Positions 3,173-12,836 of a stretch of 64,000 bases of DNA are shown here, in pieces. The DNA lies in assembly GCA_000708525.1 (NCBI GenBank), contig JMRP01000007.1:1-64000 (forward strand), given 5' to 3'. This stretch comes from Cyanobium sp. CACIAM 14. GTDB taxonomy: Bacteria; Cyanobacteriota; Cyanobacteriia; PCC-6307; Cyanobiaceae. Position 1 is the stretch's first letter; the number at the start of each line of letters is the position of its first letter. Made by a program: the position numbers and the translations under genes. The notes beneath the pieces were generated by a model that had not been told where the DNA came from, searched no databases, and worked only from the letters and a program-made list of their open reading frames with translations.

Positions 3173-3628
3173 ATGGCCCCCCGTCACCCTCTCCATCCCC
3201 GACTGGGCCTGATCGCCCTCATGGCGGCCGCCGCCGGTCTGCTGGGCACCGTCGGTCCCCTCCGCAGCGCCCATGCGGGCAACGAGATCGAGGGTCCCGG
3301 CGGCAAGGGAGCCCAGGTGTACTGCTTCATGCGCAACAACGGCAACGTCCATGAAGTGAGCTGGACCGCCGCCTATGCCCTGATCAAGCGGCAGAGCGCC
3401 GGCGTGTTCAAGACCTCCCCCGAACATGCCGCGGTGATGATCACCGAAGCGGTGGTTCAGAACCCCGGCACTTACCCCGATTGCGGCCGCTTCCTGGGGG
3501 ATCTCTACGCCCCGCGCCCATCTGGAGGCAGTGCCGCCAGTCCCCAGGCCAGTCCCACGTCCATCTCGGTCGTCGGCGGTGGTAGTGCTGGTGGCAGCGG
3601 CATGACCCGGAGTGAGCGTTACAACTGA
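3173..3628 (+). CDS. secreted cyanobacterial conserved protein (DUF6554-like)
   Basis: The 151-residue product has a signal peptide (hydrophobic residues about 11-30, SAHAG cleavage region). The conserved core contains GGKGAQVYCFMRNNGN, AYALIKRQSAGVFKTSP, AAVMITEAVVQNPGTYPDCG and GRFLGDLY. The two cysteines could pair in the periplasm. I recall this pattern as a cyanobacteria-specific family, probably DUF6554, but the number needs checking. The C-terminal 40 residues are Gly/Ser-rich and not conserved in character. The 3' end overlaps the next gene by 17 nt, suggesting translational coupling. Confidence 0.7.
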   Translation: MAPRHPLHPRLGLIALMAAAAGLLGTVGPLRSAHAGNEIEGPGGKGAQVYCFMRNNGNVHEVSWTAAYALIKRQSAGVFKTSPEHAAVMITEAVVQNPGTYPDCGRFLGDLYAPRPSGGSAASPQASPTSISVVGGGSAGGSGMTRSERYN

Positions 3629-4061
3629 GGGGTTTCGCCGGCACGCCCCGATCCCTACTCGCCACGGCAGACAGCGGACCGCGGCCCTGATCGTCGTTCT
3701 CCTGCTCGCCGGGTGCGCCGAGGAGCCCCTGCCCCAGCGGCCGATCAGCCGCGAGGACTGCCTGCGGACGGTGAAGCTTGAGGAACTGCCGGCGGCTCTG
3801 GAGCGCTGCGACAAGGTGGTGGCGGCCTTCCCGAAGGACCCTGGCCCTCTGAACGAGCGCTTCCTGCTCCACACCCTGGCCGGTGACACTGCCGCCGCCT
3901 GCCGTGACATCGCCACGGCGACCGCCCTGGCGGCGAAGGTCCCCAGGGGCGGGCTGGATCCGATCCTGCGGCAGGACCTGGAGGTGCGGCTGAAGAGCTG
4001 CCGCGGGGAGGAGCCTCGACCGACGCCCTCCCCGGGGGCTCACGAGCGTTCCAGCCACTGA
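3612..4061 (+). CDS. putative lipoprotein
   Basis: This protein of about 149 residues starts with GTG and overlaps the preceding gene by 17 nt. A basic N-terminus (RHGRQR) is followed by a short hydrophobic segment ending in the lipobox LLAGC, so it is probably lipid-anchored at Cys35. The mature part contains C-L-R and ALERCDKVVAAFPKDPGPLN, a TPR-like helix pair, and further cysteines (AACRD, LKSC). Function is unknown. The 3' end overlaps the convergent helicase gene by 22 nt. Confidence 0.65.
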   Translation: MSVTTEGFRRHAPIPTRHGRQRTAALIVVLLLAGCAEEPLPQRPISREDCLRTVKLEELPAALERCDKVVAAFPKDPGPLNERFLLHTLAGDTAAACRDIATATALAAKVPRGGLDPILRQDLEVRLKSCRGEEPRPTPSPGAHERSSH

Positions 4062-5626
4062 CGCACCAGGTCGGGCAGTTCCCGCTGACGACGCCGGTCG
4101 TCGCGGCTGTCCAGAAGCCGGGAGATCCGCTCGGCCTTGCTGGCGATCAGCTCGTCCACCAGCCGGTCGGCGACCCCCAGCTGCAGCCAGTGGCTGGTGA
4201 GGGTGGCTCCCATGCCGATGCGGTGGCAGCGATCCTCCGCCTGCTCGGCGTCGCCGGGGGTCCAGGGCCGCTCGATCAGGACCACATGCCGAGCCCGGTG
4301 GAGGGTGAACCCCAGGCCGCCGGTTCCGTAGGTGGCGATGAGCAGGGGGCGTCGTCCCGCCTGAAAGTCCTCCACCAATCGCTGCCGGCGGGTCGGGGGG
4401 ACCGCCCCGACCAGGGGTCCGCCGTCCCCCTCGCGGCCCAGCTGCCGGTGCAGGGCCAGCGCGGTCGCCACGAAACTGGTGAACACCACCACCGCCTCAC
4501 CCCGAGCCAGCAGGCCGGCCAACAGATCCACGCTGGCGGGCAGCTTGTGATGGGAGCCGATCTGACGCAGGGCCGTGAACACGGCCAGCGCTTCAGCGTC
4601 GCGTCGCACCTCCCCGGCCAGCGCCCGGCGGCGGTAATCGGCGATCCGTGCCTCGAGGGCCCGCTGGAAGCCCTCCGCGGCGGCCCCGTCGAGCCGCACG
4701 GGGTGCTCGAGCCGCTGCTTCGGCGGCAGGTCCAGACACTGGGCCTTGCGGCGATGCAGCACCAGTGGGCGCACCAGCCGCTGCAGCTCCTCCAGCTGGC
4801 TGGCGCCGCTGGCCTGCCAGATCCGCCTCCCCCCCTGCTCCCGCCAGTGTCCCTGGCAGTACCGTTCCTCGTAGTGCCGCTGGTCGGACCCGAGCGGGTG
4901 GCCGATGGCGGCCAGCAGGGGAAAGAGCTGGACCGGCCGCCCGTTCTTCATCGGGGTGCCCGTGAGCAGCCAGATCGCGCGCAGCCGGGGATGGCGCGCC
5001 AGCCGCAGGAACGCCTGGGTGCGGGCGGCGCTCATGGTCTGGGCGAAGTGGGCCTCGTCGACGATCAGCACCGTGCCGGCGGCCGGCAGCTCGGCGGGCA
5101 ACCGGGCCCAGCTGTGCAGCTCCAGGCGCAGTCCCAGGGCCGCCGCCTCCTGCCGCCAGTGGTGGTGCAGCCCCGCCGGGGCCACCACCACCAGCCGGCA
5201 GTCGGCCAGACGCACCAGGGCACGGCCGGCGACCAGCGCCGTCAGGGTCTTGCCGAGGCCCATCGCATCGGCCAGAACGGCCCCGCGGCGCGCCAGCAGC
5301 CAGCGCACCGCCAGCCGCTGGTGACGGAACAGACGGCGACCATCGGGGAGCTCCCGGTCGGCAGCGGCGGCGGCCACGAGGGCCCTGTGGGCGGGGAGAG
5401 GCGGCAGCGGCTGGCCCAGCCAGGTGAACCAGCGGGCCAGCTCAGGGGTGAGCGGGAACCGGCCGCCGCACTGGCGCTGCAGGACCTCCGCCGCCTCCAG
5501 GGGGAACTGCCAGCAGCGGCGACGGCTCAGCCACTGGCCCCGGGGACGGATGGCCCGCAGCTGCGCCTGGGTCACGGCGTCGAAGGGACTGACCACCTCG
5601 ATCAGGCCTGAGGGGCCCAGGCGCAT
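4040..5626 (-). CDS. SNF2-family DNA-dependent ATPase with HARP-like N-terminus
   Basis: The 528-residue protein carries the SNF2/SF2 motifs in order: AMGLGKT (Walker A), VDEAH (Walker B), LLTGTP (motif III), VVVFTSF, ATYGTGGLGFTLHRA and QAEDRCHRIG (motif VI). SNF2 enzymes translocate on duplex DNA. The N-terminal 60 residues (SPFDAVTQAQLRAI, then RGQWLSRRRCWQFPLE) resemble the HARP module of SMARCAL1/annealing helicases, which ends in a W-x-F-P element. The ATG at 5626 is used; a TTG at 5662 would add 12 residues. It diverges from an HNH endonuclease gene, which is a suggestive pairing. Confidence 0.85.
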   Translation of the reverse strand: MRLGPSGLIEVVSPFDAVTQAQLRAIRPRGQWLSRRRCWQFPLEAAEVLQRQCGGRFPLTPELARWFTWLGQPLPPLPAHRALVAAAAADRELPDGRRLFRHQRLAVRWLLARRGAVLADAMGLGKTLTALVAGRALVRLADCRLVVVAPAGLHHHWRQEAAALGLRLELHSWARLPAELPAAGTVLIVDEAHFAQTMSAARTQAFLRLARHPRLRAIWLLTGTPMKNGRPVQLFPLLAAIGHPLGSDQRHYEERYCQGHWREQGGRRIWQASGASQLEELQRLVRPLVLHRRKAQCLDLPPKQRLEHPVRLDGAAAEGFQRALEARIADYRRRALAGEVRRDAEALAVFTALRQIGSHHKLPASVDLLAGLLARGEAVVVFTSFVATALALHRQLGREGDGGPLVGAVPPTRRQRLVEDFQAGRRPLLIATYGTGGLGFTLHRARHVVLIERPWTPGDAEQAEDRCHRIGMGATLTSHWLQLGVADRLVDELIASKAERISRLLDSRDDRRRQRELPDLVRQWLERS

Positions 5627-5722
5627 CTCCACCAGGGGGGCGGCCAATGCGTCAAAAAGCAATCACCAACACATTGACACCCTGGACAAGGAGGCCAGAC
5701 TCCCGCCAACCGAGGCGCGCTG

Positions 5723-6160
5723 ATGCAGGCCAGGGATGGAGTCTTTCTCGAAGACCTCTGCCCCAAGCTGCGAGCGCGACGATGGCGGCAGTCGCTGCAC
5801 TGGATGACGGGCGGGCGCTGCCTCTACTGCGGCGAGACTTCGGAATCCATCGATCACGTGCATCCACTCAGCCGCGGAGGCATGAGCGTGACCGAGAACT
5901 GCGTGCCGGCCTGCCTGGGCTGCAATGGGCGCAAGGGCGACAGCGATGCCTTCGCCTGGTACCGGAACCAGCCCTTCTACGACCCGCGGCGGGCGATGGC
6001 GCTCAAGGCCTGGACCGAAGGGGACCTGCGGCTGGCCCTGCGACTGCTGCAGTGGGTCAGCCCCGGCGAGCCGGAACCGGGTTCCGCCGCCCAGGGCGGA
6101 GAAGGTCACCAGACGCGGCAGGCGTCCACCCCGTTGTGGCGCTGGCAGATGGCCTCCTGA
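5723..6160 (+). CDS. HNH endonuclease family protein
   Basis: This 145-residue protein contains a compact zinc-stabilised HNH motif. CLYCG is followed by IDHVHPLSRGG (first His of the HNH), then TENCVPACLGCNGRKGD with the Asn and the second Cys-x-x-Cys pair. The fold cuts DNA with a single metal ion. A helical tail after the nuclease (RRAMALKAWTEGDLRLALRL) may bind DNA or a partner. It is divergent from the SNF2 gene. Its last 55 bases overlap the convergent small ORF at 6106-6228. Confidence 0.85.
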   Translation: MQARDGVFLEDLCPKLRARRWRQSLHWMTGGRCLYCGETSESIDHVHPLSRGGMSVTENCVPACLGCNGRKGDSDAFAWYRNQPFYDPRRAMALKAWTEGDLRLALRLLQWVSPGEPEPGSAAQGGEGHQTRQASTPLWRWQMAS

Positions 6161-6228: not shown

Positions 6229-6418
6229 CCCGACGTGGACCCGGGCCTGTGGCCGGATCCGGCCAGGGCGGATGCGGCCGGGGGCGAGACTGGCGGAGAG
6301 GCCGGCACTGAACGCAGAGGTGGTCACGGAATCGAGGCTGGATGATGGTACAGATGTACTGACGGCTGGCGGATCTGTCAACCAGGCGCCGGCTCCGGGG
6401 GGGGTGGTGCATGCGGCG

Positions 6419-7315
6419 ATGCCCGCCGCGGCCGCCGCCATCGGCCGCATGCTGGTGCTGGGCGGTGGCTACACGGGCCGCCGCATGGCCGAGGCTCTGG
6501 AAAGGGCCGGCGTGCCGGTGGTTCTCACCCGCCGGCAACCCCTGGCCAGCCAGGAGCGTCCAGGGTGGCTGCGCTTCGATCCCCATCAGGGTGTGCTGCC
6601 CTCCCCGCAGGACCTGCTCGGCATCACCCACGTGCTGGTGACGATCCCTCCCGATGCCGGCGGCCGGGATCCGGTGCTGGACGCCCTCCTGGCGCGGCTG
6701 CTGGAGCTGCCTCTGGACTGGTTGGGGTACCTCTCCACCACGGGGGTCTACGGAGACACCGGCGGCGCCTGGGTCGATGAGAGCAGCCCCACCCGACCGC
6801 TGCTGGAGCGCAGCCGGGCCCGTCTGGCCTGCGAGGAGGCCTGGCGCCGCAGTGGCCTGCCGGTTCAGGTGCTGCGGCTGCCGGGGATCTACGGGCCGGG
6901 CCGCAATCCGCTGGAGAACCTGCGCAACGGCACCGCCCGCCTGATCCACAAACCGGGCCAGGTGTTCTCCAGGATCCACGTGGACGACATCGTCGGGGGC
7001 CTGCTCCACTGCATCGCCCTGCCGGCCGTCCGGAGGCCCGAAACCCTGATCCTGGCGGACCGCTTCCCCTGCCCTTCCAGCGAGCTGCTGGGGCTCGCCG
7101 CCCATCTGCTCGGCTGCCCGCTGCCGCCGTTCGAGCGCTTCGATGAGGTCGCTCCCAGCATGAGCGGCATGGCCAGGAGCTTCTGGAGCGAGAATCGCCG
7201 GGCCTGCAGCCGGCTTCTGAGGAGGGGACTCGGCTACCGCCTGCTCTACCCCTCCTATTGGGAGGGATTGTCGTCAGGAGTCGGGAGCTTCTTCGGCGCT
7301 CCGAAGATCTTGTGA
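6419..7315 (+). CDS. NAD-dependent epimerase/dehydratase family (extended SDR-like) protein
   Basis: This protein of about 298 residues has an N-terminal Rossmann dinucleotide motif (MLVLGGGYTGRRMAEAL) that is close to the YeeZ-type reduced SDR family. It also has YLSTTGVYGD (SDR active-site region with Ser/Tyr), LRLPGIYGPGRNPL and IHVDDIVGGLLHC (substrate-lid and NAD-fold signatures). The activity is probably NAD(P)-dependent modification of a nucleotide-activated or small metabolite, but the substrate is unknown. Starts at 6419 and 6449 are both possible. The last 61 bases overlap the convergent small membrane protein gene. Confidence 0.8.
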   Translation: MPAAAAAIGRMLVLGGGYTGRRMAEALERAGVPVVLTRRQPLASQERPGWLRFDPHQGVLPSPQDLLGITHVLVTIPPDAGGRDPVLDALLARLLELPLDWLGYLSTTGVYGDTGGAWVDESSPTRPLLERSRARLACEEAWRRSGLPVQVLRLPGIYGPGRNPLENLRNGTARLIHKPGQVFSRIHVDDIVGGLLHCIALPAVRRPETLILADRFPCPSSELLGLAAHLLGCPLPPFERFDEVAPSMSGMARSFWSENRRACSRLLRRGLGYRLLYPSYWEGLSSGVGSFFGAPKIL

Positions 7316-7437
7316 TCCGTCAGGGACGGCACATTCAGATCGGAACCCATCTTCTGCCAATCGACCACGATCCACTGGTTCCGCAAGGCATACCCAGCCC
7401 CCAGCAGCAACACACCCAGAAGAATCAGACGGACCAT
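7255..7437 (-). CDS. small membrane-anchored hypothetical protein
   Basis: The 60-residue product has one N-terminal hydrophobic helix (LILLGVLLLGAGYALRN) and a polar tail (WIVVDWQKMGSDLNVPSLTD). It probably sits in a membrane with the tail on one side. The ATG at 7437 is embedded in CATG and overlaps the divergent pdxA ATG on the other strand. The 3' end overlaps the convergent epimerase gene. The charge asymmetry and the protein-like tail argue that it is real, but this is the weaker of the overlapping genes. Confidence 0.5.
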   Translation of the reverse strand: MVRLILLGVLLLGAGYALRNQWIVVDWQKMGSDLNVPSLTDHKIFGAPKKLPTPDDNPSQ

Positions 7438-8461
7438 GGCATCAGCCGAAGGGCACTGGGCCACATGCAAGCGGAGCCGGGGGCGCCTTGTCATCTCCCT
7501 GGGGGATCCGGCCGGCATCGGCGCCGAAGTGACCCTCAAGGCCCTGGCGGGGCCGCGTCCCGCGGGAGAGGAGGTGGTGCTCGTGGGTTGCTCCCGCTGG
7601 CTGCGGCACTGCCACGAACGGCTGCGGCAGCTCAGCGACGTTCCCCTGGCAGACCCTGCCGGCTTCAGGCTGGTGGACATCCCGCTGGAGCGACCGATCA
7701 CCCCCGGGATCAGCTGTGCCGCCGCCGGAGCCGCCAGCTTCGCCTGGCTGACACGCGCCGTGGAGCTGGTGGTCGGGGGCGATGGCGACGCCCTGGTCAC
7801 GGCCCCGATCGCCAAGGCCAGCTGGGCCGCCGCAGGCCATGCCTACCCCGGCCAGACCGAACGGCTGGCGGAACTCACCGGCGCCGGTGACGCGGCGATG
7901 CTGTTCACCGCTGCGGCCCCCGGTGGAAACTGGCGATTCAATACCCTGCTGGCCACCACCCACATCCCGCTGGCCGAGGTGAGCCTGCGGCTGGGGCCCG
8001 ACCTGGTCAGCCGCCGGCTGGACGCCCTGCTGGCGTTCTGCCGGCGCTTCGCCGCCAGGCCCCGACTGGCGGTGGCGGGGCTCAACCCCCATGCGGGGGA
8101 AGAGGGGCAGCTGGGCCGGGAGGAGCAGGACTGGCTGATCCCGACACTCCTGCAGTGGCAGCAGCGACATCCGGAGGTGCGCCTGGAGGGGCCGGTCCCA
8201 CCGGACACCTGCTGGCTGGAAGCGGCCGCCGCCTGGCGGGGCGACGCCGCAGGGGCGGACGGCTACCTCGCGCTGTACCACGACCAGGGCCTGATCCCCG
8301 TGAAACTGCTGGCCTTCGATGCCGCCGTGAACACCACGCTGGGTCTGCCGTTCCTGCGCACCTCCCCGGACCACGGGACGGCCTTCGGAATCGCCGGCCG
8401 AGGGGTGGCGAGAGCCGAGAGCATGGCGGCGGCGATCCGGACCGCCCGGGAACTGGGCTAG
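7436..8461 (+). CDS. pdxA: 4-hydroxythreonine-4-phosphate dehydrogenase
   Basis: This 341-residue NAD-dependent enzyme of pyridoxal-5'-phosphate synthesis oxidises 4-phosphohydroxy-L-threonine. Recognition rests on LGDPAGIGAEVTLKAL near the N-terminus, TAPIAKASW, GHAYPGQTERLAEL, GLNPHAGEEGQLGREE, YHDQGLIPVKLLAF and LPFLRTSPDHGTAFGIAGRG. The histidines in these blocks are the family's metal ligands. Length is normal. The ATG at 7436 gives a slightly long N-terminus (MASAEGHWATCKRSRGR). The stop overlaps the convergent accB stop by 4 nt. Confidence 0.95.
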   Translation: MASAEGHWATCKRSRGRLVISLGDPAGIGAEVTLKALAGPRPAGEEVVLVGCSRWLRHCHERLRQLSDVPLADPAGFRLVDIPLERPITPGISCAAAGAASFAWLTRAVELVVGGDGDALVTAPIAKASWAAAGHAYPGQTERLAELTGAGDAAMLFTAAAPGGNWRFNTLLATTHIPLAEVSLRLGPDLVSRRLDALLAFCRRFAARPRLAVAGLNPHAGEEGQLGREEQDWLIPTLLQWQQRHPEVRLEGPVPPDTCWLEAAAAWRGDAAGADGYLALYHDQGLIPVKLLAFDAAVNTTLGLPFLRTSPDHGTAFGIAGRGVARAESMAAAIRTARELG

Positions 8462-8943
8462 GCGGTGCGGATGCGCATCAGCACCTGGCCGAACTCCACC
8501 GGGGTTCCGTTCTCCACCAGGATCTCCACCACCTCGCCGCTGACCTCGGCCTCGAGTTCGTTCATCAGCTTCATCGCCTCGAGGATGCAGACCGGTTGGC
8601 CGGCGGTGATGCGGGATCCCACTTCGACGAAGGGAGGCTCTCCCGGCGCCGAGGCCCGGTAGAACGTGCCGACCATGGGTGCCGTGATCGCCTGGAGATC
8701 GCTGCGCACCGAAGCCGACGGCGGTGGCGGAGCCGACGGAGCGGGAGGCGTGCCGGTCGGGGCGGGGGCCGCCGGCAGTGGGGCCGCCGCCGCCGGTGCC
8801 TGGACAACCGTGACCGGGGCTGCGGATGGGAGGTTGCGGCGCACCTCCAACCGGAAGTCGTCACCCTCCAGCCGGAGTTCCTGGATGTCACTCTCCCCCA
8901 GGAGAGCCAGCAACTGACGCAGTTGGTCGTGGTCGAGCTGCAT
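8458..8943 (-). CDS. accB: biotin carboxyl carrier protein of acetyl-CoA carboxylase
   Basis: The 161-residue BCCP subunit carries biotin between carboxylase and carboxyltransferase in the first step of fatty acid synthesis. It has an N-terminal structured segment, a flexible Ala/Pro-rich linker (residues about 40-78) and a C-terminal biotinyl domain with the acceptor motif EAMKLMNE, whose Lys is biotinylated. The domain opens with APMVGTFYRASAPGEPPFVE, including the usual thumb. It lies 5 bp downstream of efp on the same strand, a common efp-accB operon arrangement. Confidence 0.97.
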   Translation of the reverse strand: MQLDHDQLRQLLALLGESDIQELRLEGDDFRLEVRRNLPSAAPVTVVQAPAAAAPLPAAPAPTGTPPAPSAPPPPSASVRSDLQAITAPMVGTFYRASAPGEPPFVEVGSRITAGQPVCILEAMKLMNELEAEVSGEVVEILVENGTPVEFGQVLMRIRTA

Positions 8944-8948
8944 GGGGA

Positions 8949-9509
8949 TCAGGACTCCCGTCCGAGGTAGCTGTCGGTGCGGGTGTCGACCTTGATCTTC
9001 TCGCCGATGGAGATGAACAGGGGCACCATCACCTGGGCACCGGTCTCGAGGATGGCGGGCTTGGTGCCGCCGGTGGCGGTGTCGCCCTTGACGCCGGGGT
9101 CGGTCTGGGTGACCTCCAGCACCACCGAATTGGGAAGCTCCACCTCCAGGGGCTTGCCGTTCCAGGAGACCACGCTCACCTCCATGCCTTCCTTGAGGTA
9201 TTTGCGGCCGTCACCGATCTGCTTGGCGGTGAGGCGGGTCTCCTCGTAGGTGGACATATCCATGAAGACGTAGTCGTCTCCTTCCATGTAGGTGTGCTGC
9301 AGGGTCGCCTTCTCCAGAAGGGCCTGGGGCATGGTCTCGCCTGCCCGGAAGGTCTTCTCCACCACGTTGCCGCTCTGCACGGCCTTGAGCTTGGTGCGCA
9401 CGAACGCCGATCCCTTGCCCGGCTTGACATGGAGGAACTCGACGACACGCCAGACCTGACCGTCGAGTTCGATCGTGGTGCCGGTACGAAAGTCGTTGCT
9501 GGAGATCAT
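8949..9509 (-). CDS. efp: translation elongation factor P
   Basis: The 186-residue protein starts [17 protein letters not shown] and has the domain I tip [16 protein letters not shown], whose Lys32 is equivalent to the residue modified in other bacteria. It ends with the conserved [20 protein letters not shown] binds between the P and E sites and relieves ribosome stalling at polyproline. Length and all three beta-barrel domains are normal. The ATG at 9509 is chosen because upstream residues are not family-like. It is the first gene of an efp-accB pair. Confidence 0.98.
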
Positions 9510-9530
9510 TCCGGCGGATCGGATCGGGGG

Positions 9531-9536
9531 ATTGTA
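9531..9536 (-). promoter_or_regulatory. candidate -10 element for efp-accB
   Basis: On the minus strand the hexamer reads TACAAT, 21 bases upstream of the efp start and inside the 112-bp gap separating efp from the divergent cyclophilin gene. No good -35 match is visible. This is a weak assignment from position and sequence only. Confidence 0.3.
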
Positions 9537-9621
9537 CGTCTGGCTACAGGCTCTCCCCGTGACGGTGTCCCTGGAAGGGACTGGAGGTTGTGCCAAAGTC
9601 CAGGCAGTCACAAGGGAAACC

Positions 9622-10734
9622 ATGGACCGGCGACGCAGGTGCAGTGGCTTCAGCAGGCTCGCGGCACCTCTGGCGGGACCGCTCGGGACCGCCCTGGCCC
9701 TGGTGCTCAGTCTGCTGCTGGCGGCCCCCCCGGCCTGGGCCTACCTACCCCAGGGCAACGCGGTCAGCGATCCCACCGCCCTGCTGCGCAATGCCCTGCC
9801 GATCGAGCAGGAGGATCTGCAGAATCTGCAGCACCGCCTCGAGGACACCAGCGACGACCTGCGGGCCAAGCGCTGGAACAGCCTGACCGGTTCCGTGCGC
9901 CGGGCCCAGTCGCTGCTGGCCGGCAGCCGCGATCGCATCCTGGCCAGCTTCGACGTCGCCGACCGTCCCGCCGCCGGCGATCTGCTGACCGATGCGGACG
10001 GCCGTCTGCAGGAGCTCGCGGCCGCCGCCGAGGCCCAGCAACGGGATCCATTCCTGGCTGCCCGGCGCGAAGCCCTCGCCGACATCGGCCGGGCCGAGGC
10101 CCTGCTGGTGGGCCCCTTCCCGTTCACGATCCCCGCTGAATTCGATGCCCTGCCGCGTCTGCTGGGGCGCGCCACCGTGCGACTGACCACCACCAAGGGT
10201 GACCTGATCACGGTGGTGGACGGCTACAACGCGCCCCTGACCGCCGGCGCCTTCGTGGACCTCGTCCAGCGGGGTTTCTACGACGGCCTTCCCTTCGACC
10301 GCGCCGAGGACTTCTACGTGCTGCAGACCGGCGATCCCAAGGGTCCGGAGACGGGATTCATCGATCCGGCCACCAAGCAGGAGCGGCGGGTCCCTCTGGA
10401 GATCAAGGTCCCCGGCGAGGCGGCCCCCTTCTACAACCAGACCTTCGAGGATCTGGGTCTGTTCAAGGCCGAGCCGGTGCTCCCCTTCGCCAGCAAAGGC
10501 ACCCTGGGCTGGGCCCATTCCGACAAGAACCTGAGCGACGGTTCCTCCCAGTTCTTCCTCTTCCTCTTCGAACCGGAGCTCACCCCCGCCGGCCTCAACC
10601 TGATCGACGGCCGCTACGCCGCCTTCGGCTACGTGGTGGATGGGCTCGACGTCCTGGAGGAACTGACCGCCGACGACGGCATCGTCAGGGCCACGGTGAT
10701 CGAGGGGGCGGACAACCTGCGCCCCCATGCCTGA
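9622..10734 (+). CDS. cyclophilin-type peptidyl-prolyl isomerase, TLP40/CYP38-like
   Basis: This 370-residue protein begins with a signal peptide (hydrophobic residues about 23-37, PAWA cleavage). A helical N-terminal region of about 150 residues follows ([18 protein letters not shown], then [17 protein letters not shown]). The C-terminal cyclophilin domain has [55 protein letters not shown] and [17 protein letters not shown]. The layout matches the thylakoid-lumen TLP40/CYP38 family involved in photosystem II assembly. Several cyclophilin active-site residues are substituted, as is usual in that subfamily. The 3' end overlaps thiL by 8 nt. Confidence 0.88.
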
Positions 10735-11749
10735 GGGGCCCACCCTGGCGGAGCTGGGGGAGGCCGAGCTGATCAGACGCCTCGGCGCCTTCGCCCCGAC
10801 CGGCCAGTTCGGCGACGACGCGGCCCTGCTGGCCCTGGGACGGTCCACCCCAGCCTGCCCCCACCGACTCCAGCTGGTGGTCAACACCGATGTGCTGGTG
10901 GAGGGGGTTCATTTCAGCGACGCCACCACCGGGGCCACCGACGTCGGCTGGCGGGCCGCCGCCGCCAACCTCTCCGACCTGGCGGCCATGGGCTGCCAGG
11001 ACGCCCTGGGGATCACCGTGGGACTGGTGGCTCCGGGACACACCCCCTGGTCCTGGGTGGAGGGGGCCTATGCCGGCATGAGCGAGCTGCTGATCGCCCA
11101 TGGGGGCGTCCTGCTGGGGGGGGACTGCAGCGACGGCCGCCAGCGCCTGCTGGCGATCACCGCCCTCGGGCGGCTCGCAGACGATCGGGGCGGGCCCATC
11201 CGGCGGGGAGACGGGCGGCCGGGTGATCATCTGATCTCCACAGGCACCCATGGGCTGAGCCGGCTGGGTCTGGCCCTGCTGCAGGGGGCCGACCTGCCCT
11301 CACTGTCGGCGGCGGAGCGCGAGCGGGCGATCGGCGCCCACCGGCGTCCGCGGCCCCGCTTCGACGCGGTGGCGGCGCTGGCCGGCTGCCGACCGACGGG
11401 CCTGCCCTGGCGGGTGGCGGGTTGCGACAGCAGCGACGGACTGGCGGCCGCGGCGGAATACCTGGCGGTGGCCAGCGGTTGCACGGCCCTCCTGGAGCAG
11501 GCCGCACTGCCCGTGGCAGCGGGGCTGGAGGGACTGGCCGAGGCGGAGAGCTGGTGCCTCTGGGGCGGCGAGGATTTCGAGCTGGTGCTGGCCCTGGAGC
11601 CGGCATGGGCCGACGCCCTGCTGGAGCAGCTGGAGGGCTCCAGCCGGATCGGCATCCTGACGGCCCCCCAGCGGGCTGGGGCGCTCCTCTGGTCGGAGGG
11701 CGGGGAACCGATCCGGCCCCCGGGGGAGGCCTTCCGGCATTTCACCTGA
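10727..11749 (+). CDS. thiL: thiamine-phosphate kinase
   Basis: The 340-residue ATP-dependent kinase converts thiamine phosphate to thiamine diphosphate. Diagnostic blocks are GQFGDDAALLAL, NTDVLVEGVHFS, WRAAAANLSDLAAMG, LLGGDCSDG and the late WGGEDFELVLAL. The Asp-rich motifs coordinate Mg-ATP. Length is normal. It overlaps the upstream cyclophilin gene by 8 nt, implying coupled translation, although the two functions are unrelated. Confidence 0.95.
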   Translation: MPEGPTLAELGEAELIRRLGAFAPTGQFGDDAALLALGRSTPACPHRLQLVVNTDVLVEGVHFSDATTGATDVGWRAAAANLSDLAAMGCQDALGITVGLVAPGHTPWSWVEGAYAGMSELLIAHGGVLLGGDCSDGRQRLLAITALGRLADDRGGPIRRGDGRPGDHLISTGTHGLSRLGLALLQGADLPSLSAAERERAIGAHRRPRPRFDAVAALAGCRPTGLPWRVAGCDSSDGLAAAAEYLAVASGCTALLEQAALPVAAGLEGLAEAESWCLWGGEDFELVLALEPAWADALLEQLEGSSRIGILTAPQRAGALLWSEGGEPIRPPGEAFRHFT

Positions 11750-11813
11750 GGGGCTCTCCATCTGAAGGGTCAGAGAACCCGCTGGAGCCCCATGGGGCCT
11801 CAGATGGGGAGGC
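11750..11813. terminator. structured bidirectional terminator candidate between thiL and gap2
   Basis: The 64-bp gap between the convergent thiL and gap2 genes holds nested inverted repeats. CCATCTGA (11758-11765) pairs perfectly with TCAGATGG (11800-11807), and the arms extend outward with one G-T mismatch. Inside lies the 12-bp perfect palindrome GCCCCATGGGGC (about 11787-11798). There is no U-run on either strand, so this is a hairpin-type stop or mRNA 3'-end stabiliser rather than a textbook intrinsic terminator. Confidence 0.5.
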
Positions 11814-12836
11814 TCACTTCCAGTTGCGGGCGACCACCTCGGCCAGGTCGACGACGCGCTGGCTGTAGCCCCATTCGTTGTCGTACCAGCAGATCACCTT
11901 CACCATGTTGTCCCCCATTACCAGGGTCAGATCGGCGTCGACGATCGCCGACTCATCGGTGCCGGCGTGGTCGGTGGAGACCAGGGGCAGGTCGCAGAAC
12001 TTGATGATGCCCTTCATGCCGTTCTCCGAAGCCGCCTTGAGGGTGGCGTTGACTTCCTCCTTGGTGGTGCTGCGGCTGACCTCGAGAACCAGATCCACCA
12101 CCGACACGTTGGGGGTGGGGACCCTCAGGGCGATCCCGTTCAGCTTGCCCTGCATCGGCGGATAGACCAGAGCGACGGCCTTGGCGGCACCGGTGGAGGT
12201 GGGCACGATGTTGACGGCGGCAGCCCGGGCCCGGCGAAGATCGCGGTGGCTGGCGTCGAGGATCCGCTGGTCACCGGTGTAGCTGTGGGTGGTGGTCATC
12301 GTGCCCTTGACGATGCCGAAGGCCTGGTCGAGCACCTTCACCACCGGAGCCATGCAGTTGGTGGTGCAGCTGGCGTTGCTGATGACGGCGTAGTCGTCAT
12401 GGCGGTACTGGTCGGCGTTGACGCCGACGACGAAGGTGCCGACACCTTCACCCTTGCCGGGGGCGGTGATCAGGACCTTCTTGGCGCCCGCTTCGATGTG
12501 CTTGCTGGCCCCCTTCTCATCGATGAAGACACCCGTGGCCTCGATCACCAGATCGACGCCCCACTCCTTCCAGGGAAGGTTGAGGGGATTCCGGTCGGAA
12601 AAACATTTGATCGCCTTCCCGTTCACCACGATCGTGTCGTCGGTGTGGCTCACTTCCGCATTGCGGATGCGGCCCAGCATCGTGTCGTACTGGAGCAGGT
12701 GCGCGTTGGTCTTCGGATCGGAGGTGTCGTTCAGACCGACGACCTCGATGCCGGTGTTGGCCCCGCGGCTGAGCCAGCAGCGCATGAAGTTCCGACCGAT
12801 TCGGCCAAATCCGTTGATCGCTACGCGCAAGGTCAT
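11814..12836 (-). CDS. gap2: glyceraldehyde-3-phosphate dehydrogenase, Gap2 type
   Basis: The 340-residue enzyme has the Rossmann start [18 protein letters not shown], the active-site [13 protein letters not shown] with the catalytic Cys, [20 protein letters not shown] and the C-terminal [17 protein letters not shown]. The [11 protein letters not shown] block and the [20 protein letters not shown] segment are typical of the cyanobacterial and plastid NADP-linked Gap2. That enzyme works in the Calvin cycle and gluconeogenesis. Gap2 normally takes part in CP12-PRK regulation, though CP12 is not in this window. It is monocistronic, with a 133-bp upstream gap. Confidence 0.97.

What the first reader, a model, noticed from the sequence alone, without database searches (positions are those of the whole stretch)
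4040..6160. HARP-like SNF2 ATPase divergent from an HNH nuclease
The SNF2 protein has a short N-terminal module resembling the HARP domain of annealing helicases, and its divergent neighbour is a stand-alone HNH nuclease. In eukaryotic ZRANB3 an SNF2 annealing helicase and an HNH nuclease are fused in one protein acting at stalled forks. A split bacterial pair could do similar fork remodelling, or act in defence.
Basis: partly seen in the sequence, partly recalled or inferred. Interest (0 to 1): 0.5.

Follow-up and report, generated by a model that had tools for sequence, protein, structure and literature searches.

The report
Cyanobacterial SNF2 translocase beside HNH nuclease
Two DNA-handling genes, a motor protein and a small DNA-cutting enzyme that resembles free-standing enzymes of cyanobacterial viruses, sit back to back in a stable housekeeping stretch of picocyanobacterial genomes; they do not look like a split version of the human repair protein ZRANB3, but the cutting enzyme is kept even by tiny genomes and its job is unknown.

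Summary
An SNF2-family ATPase (4040-5662, -) stands divergent from a stand-alone HNH nuclease (5723-6160, +), with catalytic motifs intact. In 250 genomes of the order, 133 carry the SNF2 and all 133 have the HNH beside it. Adjacency means little, because the surrounding block (gap2-thiL-ppi-efp-accB-pdxA-SDR-HNH-SNF2-lipoprotein-DUF6554-abrB) is colinear in the family members opened. The SNF2 was lost alone at least twice (a Prochlorococcus-like clade and genome G141), with no general relaxation of the HNH. The pair is missing together in nested genome G191.

HARP is only indirectly supported. The window's N-terminus matches no Pfam family; three distant relatives match HARP weakly (best E 2.9e-4, below cut-off), and a profile comparison links the two modules (82% probability), though a single-profile search does not.

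A split ZRANB3 is not supported: no fusion, no sequence match to the ZRANB3 HNH structure, no defence gene among ten neighbours. The HNH's nearest relatives found outside the family are cyanophage HNH genes; in two opened phages these run against the strand of tail genes, as homing enzymes do.

Best reading: a HARP-like translocase and a separately conserved, probably domesticated phage-type HNH. New member of a known kind.

The parts
4040..5662 (-). SNF2-family ATPase/translocase, 540 aa from TTG 5662 or 528 aa from ATG 5626 (preferred)
   Evidence: AF2 model pLDDT 88.4, pTM 0.87; ATPase core like INO80/ISW1/CSB, Z about 28
5435..5626 (-). N-terminal 64-aa module, probably HARP-like (predicted strand-helix-strand-strand-helix)
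   Evidence: secondary structure; no direct Pfam hit; transitive link via L076-L078; non-circular single-profile search not significant (L076 E 0.3, L078 E 2, L077 not in the rows printed, which reach E 4.5)
5723..6160 (+). stand-alone HNH nuclease, 145 aa, zinc-ribbon (C-x2-C / C-x2-C) type with WYRxQxFYDPRR extension
   Evidence: AF2 model poor (pLDDT 63)
6116..6157 (+). conserved C-terminal tail of the HNH (RQASTPLWRWQMAS), joined by a linker of variable length
   Evidence: RWQMA[SA] in the 18 of 34 rows of the Cyanobium-like type; 11 of the 16 other rows end in Q-x-A
5663..5722 (.). divergent intergenic region (60 bp; 96 bp if SNF2 starts at 5626)
   Evidence: gaps between matched segments 63-235 bp, median 180, in 129 genomes
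3173..4061 (+). flanking conserved genes: DUF6554 protein (3173-3628) and lipoprotein with a weak TPR match (3612-4061, overlaps the SNF2 3' end)
6272..12836. flanking housekeeping block: SDR/epimerase, pdxA, accB (BCCP), efp, thiL, gap2 (GAPDH), and a cyclophilin-like ppi (name recalled from sequence; no NCBIfam match at 1e-10)

Best explanation
Two separately conserved DNA-handling genes that share a divergent promoter region inside a stable picocyanobacterial gene block. The SNF2 protein is a single-motor double-strand DNA translocase with a probable HARP-like N-terminal substrate module; by analogy with SMARCAL1 it most likely rewinds or branch-migrates DNA at stalled forks or repair intermediates (inferred). 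The HNH protein is an active-looking metal-dependent nicking/cutting nuclease, of the same family as free-standing homing-type HNH nucleases of cyanophages, probably domesticated before the main Cyanobiaceae radiation and now serving a function of its own that does not need the SNF2. Shown: motifs, conservation, synteny, loss pattern, phage relatedness. Inferred: activities, direction of host/phage transfer, biological role.
For: SNF2 motif residues invariant in 32 rows and a confident model. N-terminal module links to HARP through distant relatives. HNH catalytic and zinc residues invariant in 34 of 34 rows. HNH present in 241 of 250 order genomes at E <= 1.9e-42 but SNF2 in only 133. SNF2-only loss in the Prochlorococcus-like clade (bootstrap 100) and in G141, where a possible 36-aa SNF2 remnant is left (E 0.010). 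HNH constraint not generally changed without SNF2 (excess identity 9.4 versus 9.6 points, 6 versus 7 loci, p 0.95). Cyanophage rows among the phage matches show 35-41% identity over about residues 4-105; the gene runs against tail or structural genes in S-CRES1 and S-CBS2. Host sequences form one clade, shallow except for the L079 paralogue, next to deeper phage branches. RecG is present over cut-off in 12 of 13 genomes tested, so the SNF2 is not the only candidate fork remodeller.
Against: SNF2 was not found without HNH (0 of 133), and in G191 the pair is missing together from an otherwise intact block. Both genes are absent in the g21/g30 lineages, which branch first in a weakly supported part of the tree, so they may have been gained together; this fits a functional unit too. 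In G141, which lost SNF2, the HNH also lost its usual C-terminal ending and shows the lowest excess identity (3.2 points). Direction host-to-phage versus phage-to-host is not resolved (midpoint-rooted tree), and not all opened phage copies run against their neighbours (S-CBS1 does not). The phage search also hit many actinophages (for example Microbacterium 72 of 367 records). HARP assignment of the window protein is transitive only; the single-profile search was not significant.
Confidence: 0.55

Rival explanations
1. The two proteins act together as a split ZRANB3-like machine: the HARP-SNF2 motor remodels a stalled fork and the HNH cuts it.
For: 133 of 133 co-occurrence with divergent adjacency; joint absence in G191 and in g21/g30; probable HARP-like module; [quoted passage not shown]
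Against: Block-wide colinearity explains adjacency; HNH is present without SNF2 in 108 of 241 genomes and is not generally relaxed; ZRANB3 HNH entry 5MKW not matched at E <= 10; distant relatives L076-L078 and 77 of 80 named loci (the ones not of Cyanobiaceae type) show no HNH in the stretch held; divergent, so not an operon.
Confidence: 0.2
2. The HNH is a host-borne, phage-derived nuclease that protects against cyanophages (by cutting a site that related phages carry), with SNF2 an unrelated neighbour or a helper.
For: Nearest relatives found outside the family are cyanophage HNH genes; present in hosts with the smallest genomes; extra copies in genus g2.
Against: Defence genes are usually patchy and in islands (recalled); this one is near-universal in the family, sits in one place and evolves slowly; PADLOC gives only weak HNH-domain matches for it and none for ten neighbours.
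Confidence: 0.1
3. SNF2 is a transcription-recycling (RapA/HepA-like) rather than a fork-remodelling translocase.
For: SNF2 motor of a bacterial protein; RapA model hit E 1.2e-4.
Against: The RapA hit covers 43 residues of a 959-position model; the N-terminal module points to HARP instead.
Confidence: 0.1

Closest known systems
SMARCAL1/HARP annealing helicases (Pfam HARP PF07443)
   Same: N-terminal module plus a single SNF2 motor; N-terminal modules of distant relatives match the HARP model, best E 2.9e-4
   Different: Window protein gives no HARP match; much shorter (recalled); single module; bacterial
ZRANB3/AH2
   Same: An SNF2 motor and a zinc-type HNH nuclease are encoded side by side
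   Different: Separate, divergent genes; HNH does not match 5MKW by sequence; HNH kept without SNF2; the 36-residue motif core from C-x2-C to C-x2-C-N has constant spacing between C-x2-C and DH
Free-standing HNH endonucleases of cyanophages (PHROG 2214; S-CRES1 gp74, S-CBS2 gp017, PSS2)
   Same: HNH motif, upstream W/R segment and WYRxQxFYD-like extension, stand-alone gene
   Different: Host gene sits at one syntenic place, looks vertically inherited and slowly evolving; has a conserved C-terminal tail
Geobacter metallireducens HNH nicking endonuclease (PDB 4H9D; described so in PMC5481773, passages read)
   Same: Best solved-structure match of the HNH profile, E 3.1e-9 over positions 16-75
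   Different: Only the core aligns; the conserved C-terminal half does not
Phage SNF2-type DNA helicases (PHROG 62)
   Same: E 3.7e-66 over residues 45-513; Arthrobacter phage Shrooms helicase aligned from residue 14, 27%
   Different: No HARP match in three phage proteins tested

Membership tests
SMARCAL1/HARP annealing helicase | SNF2 ATPase motor with complete helicase motifs | tested here: met
SMARCAL1/HARP annealing helicase | HARP domain N-terminal to the motor | tested here: inconclusive
   No Pfam HARP hit for 15 of 15 Cyanobiaceae modules including the window's; 3 of 14 modules, all from distant relatives, hit HARP, best 20.7 bits against a cut-off of 25; hhalign link 82%; non-circular HMM E 0.3 (L076) and 2 (L078); fold comparison did not cover the N-terminus
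SMARCAL1/HARP annealing helicase | ATP-dependent annealing or fork regression | not testable with these tools
   biochemistry needed
ZRANB3 | SNF2 motor and HNH nuclease in one polypeptide | tested here: not met
   separate divergent genes in the window and in all 129 genomes with both rows listed
ZRANB3 | HNH domain of the ZRANB3 type (sequence match to 5MKW) | tested here: inconclusive
   5MKW not among 23 sequences at E <= 10; that the copy holds 5MKW was not verified, and absence from a sequence search does not exclude a shared fold
ZRANB3 | ZRANB3-specific helical insert in the HNH domain | tested here: inconclusive
   7 residues between C-x2-C and DH in 34 of 34 rows; exact place of the ZRANB3 insert not checked residue by residue
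ZRANB3 | PCNA/clamp-binding motifs and NZF | not tested
   no clamp-motif scan was run
Free-standing phage-type HNH homing endonuclease | HNH catalytic motif and stand-alone gene related to phage copies | tested here: met
Free-standing phage-type HNH homing endonuclease | mobility: varying insertion sites, patchy presence | tested here: not met
   same place beside SNF2 in 133 genomes and in the same block in five SNF2-less loci; 241 of 250 genomes; a further copy elsewhere in genus g2
Anti-phage defence system (DISARM, Zorya, Dpd, BREX helicases) | full-length match to a defence helicase and defence gene neighbours | tested here: not met
   partial matches to longer models only; 0 of 10 neighbouring proteins match PADLOC at E <= 0.001

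The most novel reading that the evidence does not exclude
A cyanophage homing-type HNH nuclease was captured by the ancestor of the main Cyanobiaceae, together with a HARP-SNF2 motor placed back to back with it, to form a two-protein fork-processing module: an independent, unfused analogue of ZRANB3. Later lineages such as Prochlorococcus dropped the motor but could not drop the nuclease, which had become a core gene of the most abundant phototrophs on Earth.
Probability: 0.17. Interest if true: 0.65.

Novelty: new member of a known kind. Interest (0 to 1): 0.36.

Why it matters
If the domestication reading holds, nearly every picocyanobacterium sampled, including streamlined Prochlorococcus-like genomes of 1.4-2.0 Mb, keeps a phage-type HNH nuclease as a core gene of unknown function. 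That is directly testable with a gene knock-out. The SNF2 neighbour is a plausible bacterial HARP-type translocase; [quoted passage not shown]

Tried and rejected
Adjacency as evidence for function: rejected as weak, because the block is colinear in the loci opened.

Relaxed selection on HNH after SNF2 loss: not seen overall (6 versus 7 loci, p 0.95; G141 alone is low at 3.2 points).

HARP by Pfam in the own genome: no match at E <= 10. HARP by PDB sequence search with the module profile: only matches at E 1.2 and above, to unrelated chains. HARP by fold comparison: the 50 rows shown are filled by the ATPase core, model residues 68-512, so the N-terminus stays untested; no row is named as a HARP chain, which is no evidence either way.

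HNH structure: poor model (pLDDT 63), so not searched by fold.

Three are Cyanobiaceae-type by their N-terminal module (L085, L086, L088), two of them with the HNH; L086 starts inside the SNF2 reading frame region. None of the other 77 has an HNH in the stretch held by profile (E <= 0.05) or motif. Some stretches are short.

RecG replacement: rejected, RecG present over cut-off in 12 of 13 genomes (the exception, G191, is 95% complete).

HNH as the UV-induced PMM1528 of PMC2921402 (passages read): probably a different, generic HNH. This is an inference from position: the conserved locus lies near 31 kb in several small genomes, and a generic HNH lies near 1.46 Mb in G007.

Literature: searches (open-licence PMC only) listed no paper whose title or abstract start describes this pair. 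PMC5481773, PMC2921402, PMC6102989, PMC2292703, PMC9069017 and PMC9371921 were seen as passages; PMC3441193 was searched for four terms with no occurrence.
Full report
Observation. The SNF2 gene (4040-5662, minus) and the HNH gene (5723-6160, plus) are present as described. Pfam gives SNF2-rel_dom (E 1.2e-19), Helicase_C (1.7e-12) and HNH (1.9e-9). The SNF2 ORF opens with TTG, but relatives outside the closest ones align from about residue 10-15, so ATG 5626 is the likelier start. Both genes are under purifying selection (dN/dS 0.12-0.26 for HNH, 0.16-0.26 for SNF2; 8 comparisons each). The window lies in a 3.2-Mb genome of one picocyanobacterial family. A named record carrying the pair is a Synechococcus sp. 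UW140 MAG contig (L088).

Distribution. In 250 genomes of the order, SNF2 is found in 133 at E <= 1e-20. HNH is found in 243 at E <= 1e-8, of which two (G191, G196) are weak at 4.8e-10 and 3.9e-9; the other 241 are at E <= 1.9e-42. All 133 SNF2 genomes have the HNH divergent next door: 129 of 129 with both rows listed, with 63-235 bp between matched segments, median 180; the remaining four were seen in fetched loci (G181 cut by the contig end, G069, G241; G153). Counted by hand from the table, the 108 HNH-only genomes are 107 of genera g2, g3, g4, g7 and g12, plus G141 of g9; in a few of them (for example G099, G179, G225, E about 1e-45) the best match may be the second copy rather than the one at this locus. 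Genome size (1.4-2.0 Mb) and the tree suggest that these five genera are Prochlorococcus. In 292 genomes of the phylum, the HNH at E <= 1e-15 occurs only in this family (36 of 36 hits); the SNF2 at E <= 1e-40 occurs in 21 family members and 3 distant genomes at 35-38% identity. A profile search of 194 genomes of the class finds HNH-containing proteins in 191, but in the rows listed the matches outside the family are short and weak (best 2.9e-15), mostly to the HNH core.

Why adjacency says little. Twenty loci were fetched; 11 of them are SNF2-bearing family members. The order abrB-like, DUF6554, lipoprotein, SNF2, HNH, SDR, pdxA, accB, efp, ppi, thiL, gap2 is the same in these 11 as far as the stretch reaches and the gene was detected; the lipoprotein was not detected in L069, L074 and L080, and the abrB-like gene not in L082. 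In the five Prochlorococcus-like loci the block is in the same order without SNF2 and without a detectable lipoprotein; the abrB-like gene was detected in two of the five. None of ten neighbouring proteins matches PADLOC. A divergent pair that stays together inside a frozen block is not evidence of joint function.

History. A seven-gene tree with six outgroups (only pdxA and gap2 for these; the deep family nodes are weak, support 40-67) places the HNH-only clade g2/g3/g4/g7/g12 (bootstrap 100) well inside the pair-bearing genomes, and G141 beside a pair-bearing genome (100). So SNF2 was lost alone at least twice. In G141 an 887-bp gap holds a possible 36-residue SNF2 remnant (E 0.010 in a three-sequence search). 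G191 (g29) lies inside a 14-genome clade supported at 100 (81 for its exact place) and lacks both genes from an otherwise intact block: one joint loss. The g21/g30 lineages, which branch first with weak support, also lack both in every genome sampled (8 genomes at these thresholds; G196 has only the weak HNH match), so either the pair was gained after they split or it was lost there. HNH-only loss was not seen. HNH is on average as constrained where SNF2 is gone as where it is present (excess identity over four neighbours 9.4 against 9.6 points; 6 and 7 loci; p 0.95). This speaks for a function of HNH that does not need SNF2. The joint loss, the absence of SNF2 without HNH (0 of 133) and the loss of the usual HNH ending in G141 speak mildly for a link.

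The SNF2 protein. The AF2 model is confident (pLDDT 88.4, pTM 0.87), and the motor matches INO80, ISW1 and CSB at Z about 28 over 369-409 residues. The N-terminal part is predicted as strand-helix-strand-strand-helix. It matches no Pfam family in the window or in 15 of 15 family members. The equivalent modules of the three distant relatives match only HARP (E 2.9e-4, 4e-4, 0.068; all below the 25-bit cut-off; 0.013 and 0.011 for L077 and L078 when the whole proteins are scanned). Profile-profile comparison joins the two sets over 60 columns (probability 82%, P 1e-5), but a single-profile search from the family side does not (L076 E 0.3, L078 E 2). HARP-like is therefore likely, not proven. By analogy with SMARCAL1 (annealing and branch migration of HARP proteins: abstract start of PMC4035279 in the listing) an annealing or branch-migrating translocase is the best guess. 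RecG is present over cut-off in 12 of 13 genomes tested, so this would be an additional, dispensable factor, in keeping with its repeated loss.

The HNH protein. The presumed metal- and zinc-binding positions (assigned from recalled HNH knowledge) are invariant in 34 of 34 rows, as are parts of the flanks (CPK, WR, WYR-x-Q-x-FYDPRR, A..AW). The best solved match is 4H9D (E 3.1e-9), described in PMC5481773 as a Geobacter HNH nicking endonuclease. The ZRANB3 HNH entry 5MKW (named there; passages read) is not matched at E <= 10. Among 50,697 phage records, 367 hold a match at E <= 1e-3; 146 are named Synechococcus, Prochlorococcus or cyanophage, and many others are actinophages (Microbacterium 72, Mycobacterium 43). 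Of the 25 rows listed, 22 are cyanophages at 35-41% identity over about residues 4-105. Five were opened. In S-CRES1 and S-CBS2 the HNH gene runs against the surrounding tail or structural genes; in PSS2 the match runs against its neighbours and is unannotated; in S-EIVl it stands between hypothetical genes; in S-CBS1 it is unannotated between same-strand genes. Two clear cases and one likely one thus look like free-standing homing genes. In a midpoint-rooted tree with 18 viral-collection loci, the host proteins form one clade (shallow except for the L079 paralogue) next to deeply diverged phage copies; L163, filed as viral, falls inside it and is a cyanobacterial contig. Domestication of a phage-type HNH is the simplest reading, but the direction is not proven.

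Mechanism, with steps marked. Shown: intact ATPase and nuclease motifs, conservation in place, separable loss. Inferred from families: DNA translocation by SNF2, metal-dependent DNA cleavage by HNH. Guessed: fork or repair-intermediate remodelling by SNF2, and a separate DNA-processing task for HNH. The ZRANB3-like joint machine remains possible (about 0.2) but has no specific support beyond co-occurrence.

Novelty. HARP-like SNF2 proteins, phage SNF2 helicases and HNH nucleases are all known; PMC5481773 (passages) itself mentions bacterial ZRANB3-like proteins and stand-alone bacterial HNH relatives. I file this as a new member of known kinds. The more interesting leftover is a near-universal phage-type HNH in picocyanobacteria whose role I found described in none of the searches listed.

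Noticed in passing
L079:6923-7264 (G009) and similar copies in other g2 genomes: A second, diverged HNH copy (51-56% identical to the window's) lies elsewhere in several 1.6-1.7-Mb g2 genomes, surprising for streamlined genomes.
   Followed up: partly
window 6116-6157 and the ends of A2 rows: The HNH ends in a conserved peptide (RWQMA[SA] in 18 of 34 rows, the Cyanobium-like type) after a linker of very variable length; 11 of the 16 other rows end in Q-x-A, some of them in genomes without SNF2, while G141 has lost it.
   Followed up: partly
L188:2501-2785 (S-CBS1) and L191:2501-2815 (Cyanophage PSS2, NC_013021): HNH coding matches without an annotated gene in the deposited phage records.
   Followed up: no
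L163 (IMGVR_UViG_3300006334_001582): A contig filed as viral carries abrB-like, DUF6554 and HNH in host order, so it is a cyanobacterial fragment.
   Followed up: yes
L085 (CALPNT020000066.1): A contig titled Bifidobacterium breve MAG carries the Cyanobiaceae-type SNF2-HNH pair, so it looks mis-binned.
   Followed up: partly
window 3612-4061: The lipoprotein ORF overlaps the 3' end of the convergent SNF2 gene by 22 bases; it was not detected in the five Prochlorococcus-like loci that lack SNF2 but is kept in G141 and G191.
   Followed up: no
G191 (genus g29): No RecG over the cut-off (only a 1206-aa frame matched, probably Mfd) in a 1.9-Mb genome that also lacks the SNF2-HNH pair; genome 95% complete.
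   Followed up: no
PMC6102989, table passage: A different, longer SNF2/RAD54 helicase is listed as specific to low-light Prochlorococcus clades LLII/III (SS120, about 3.2 kb); not compared with the window's gene.
   Followed up: no
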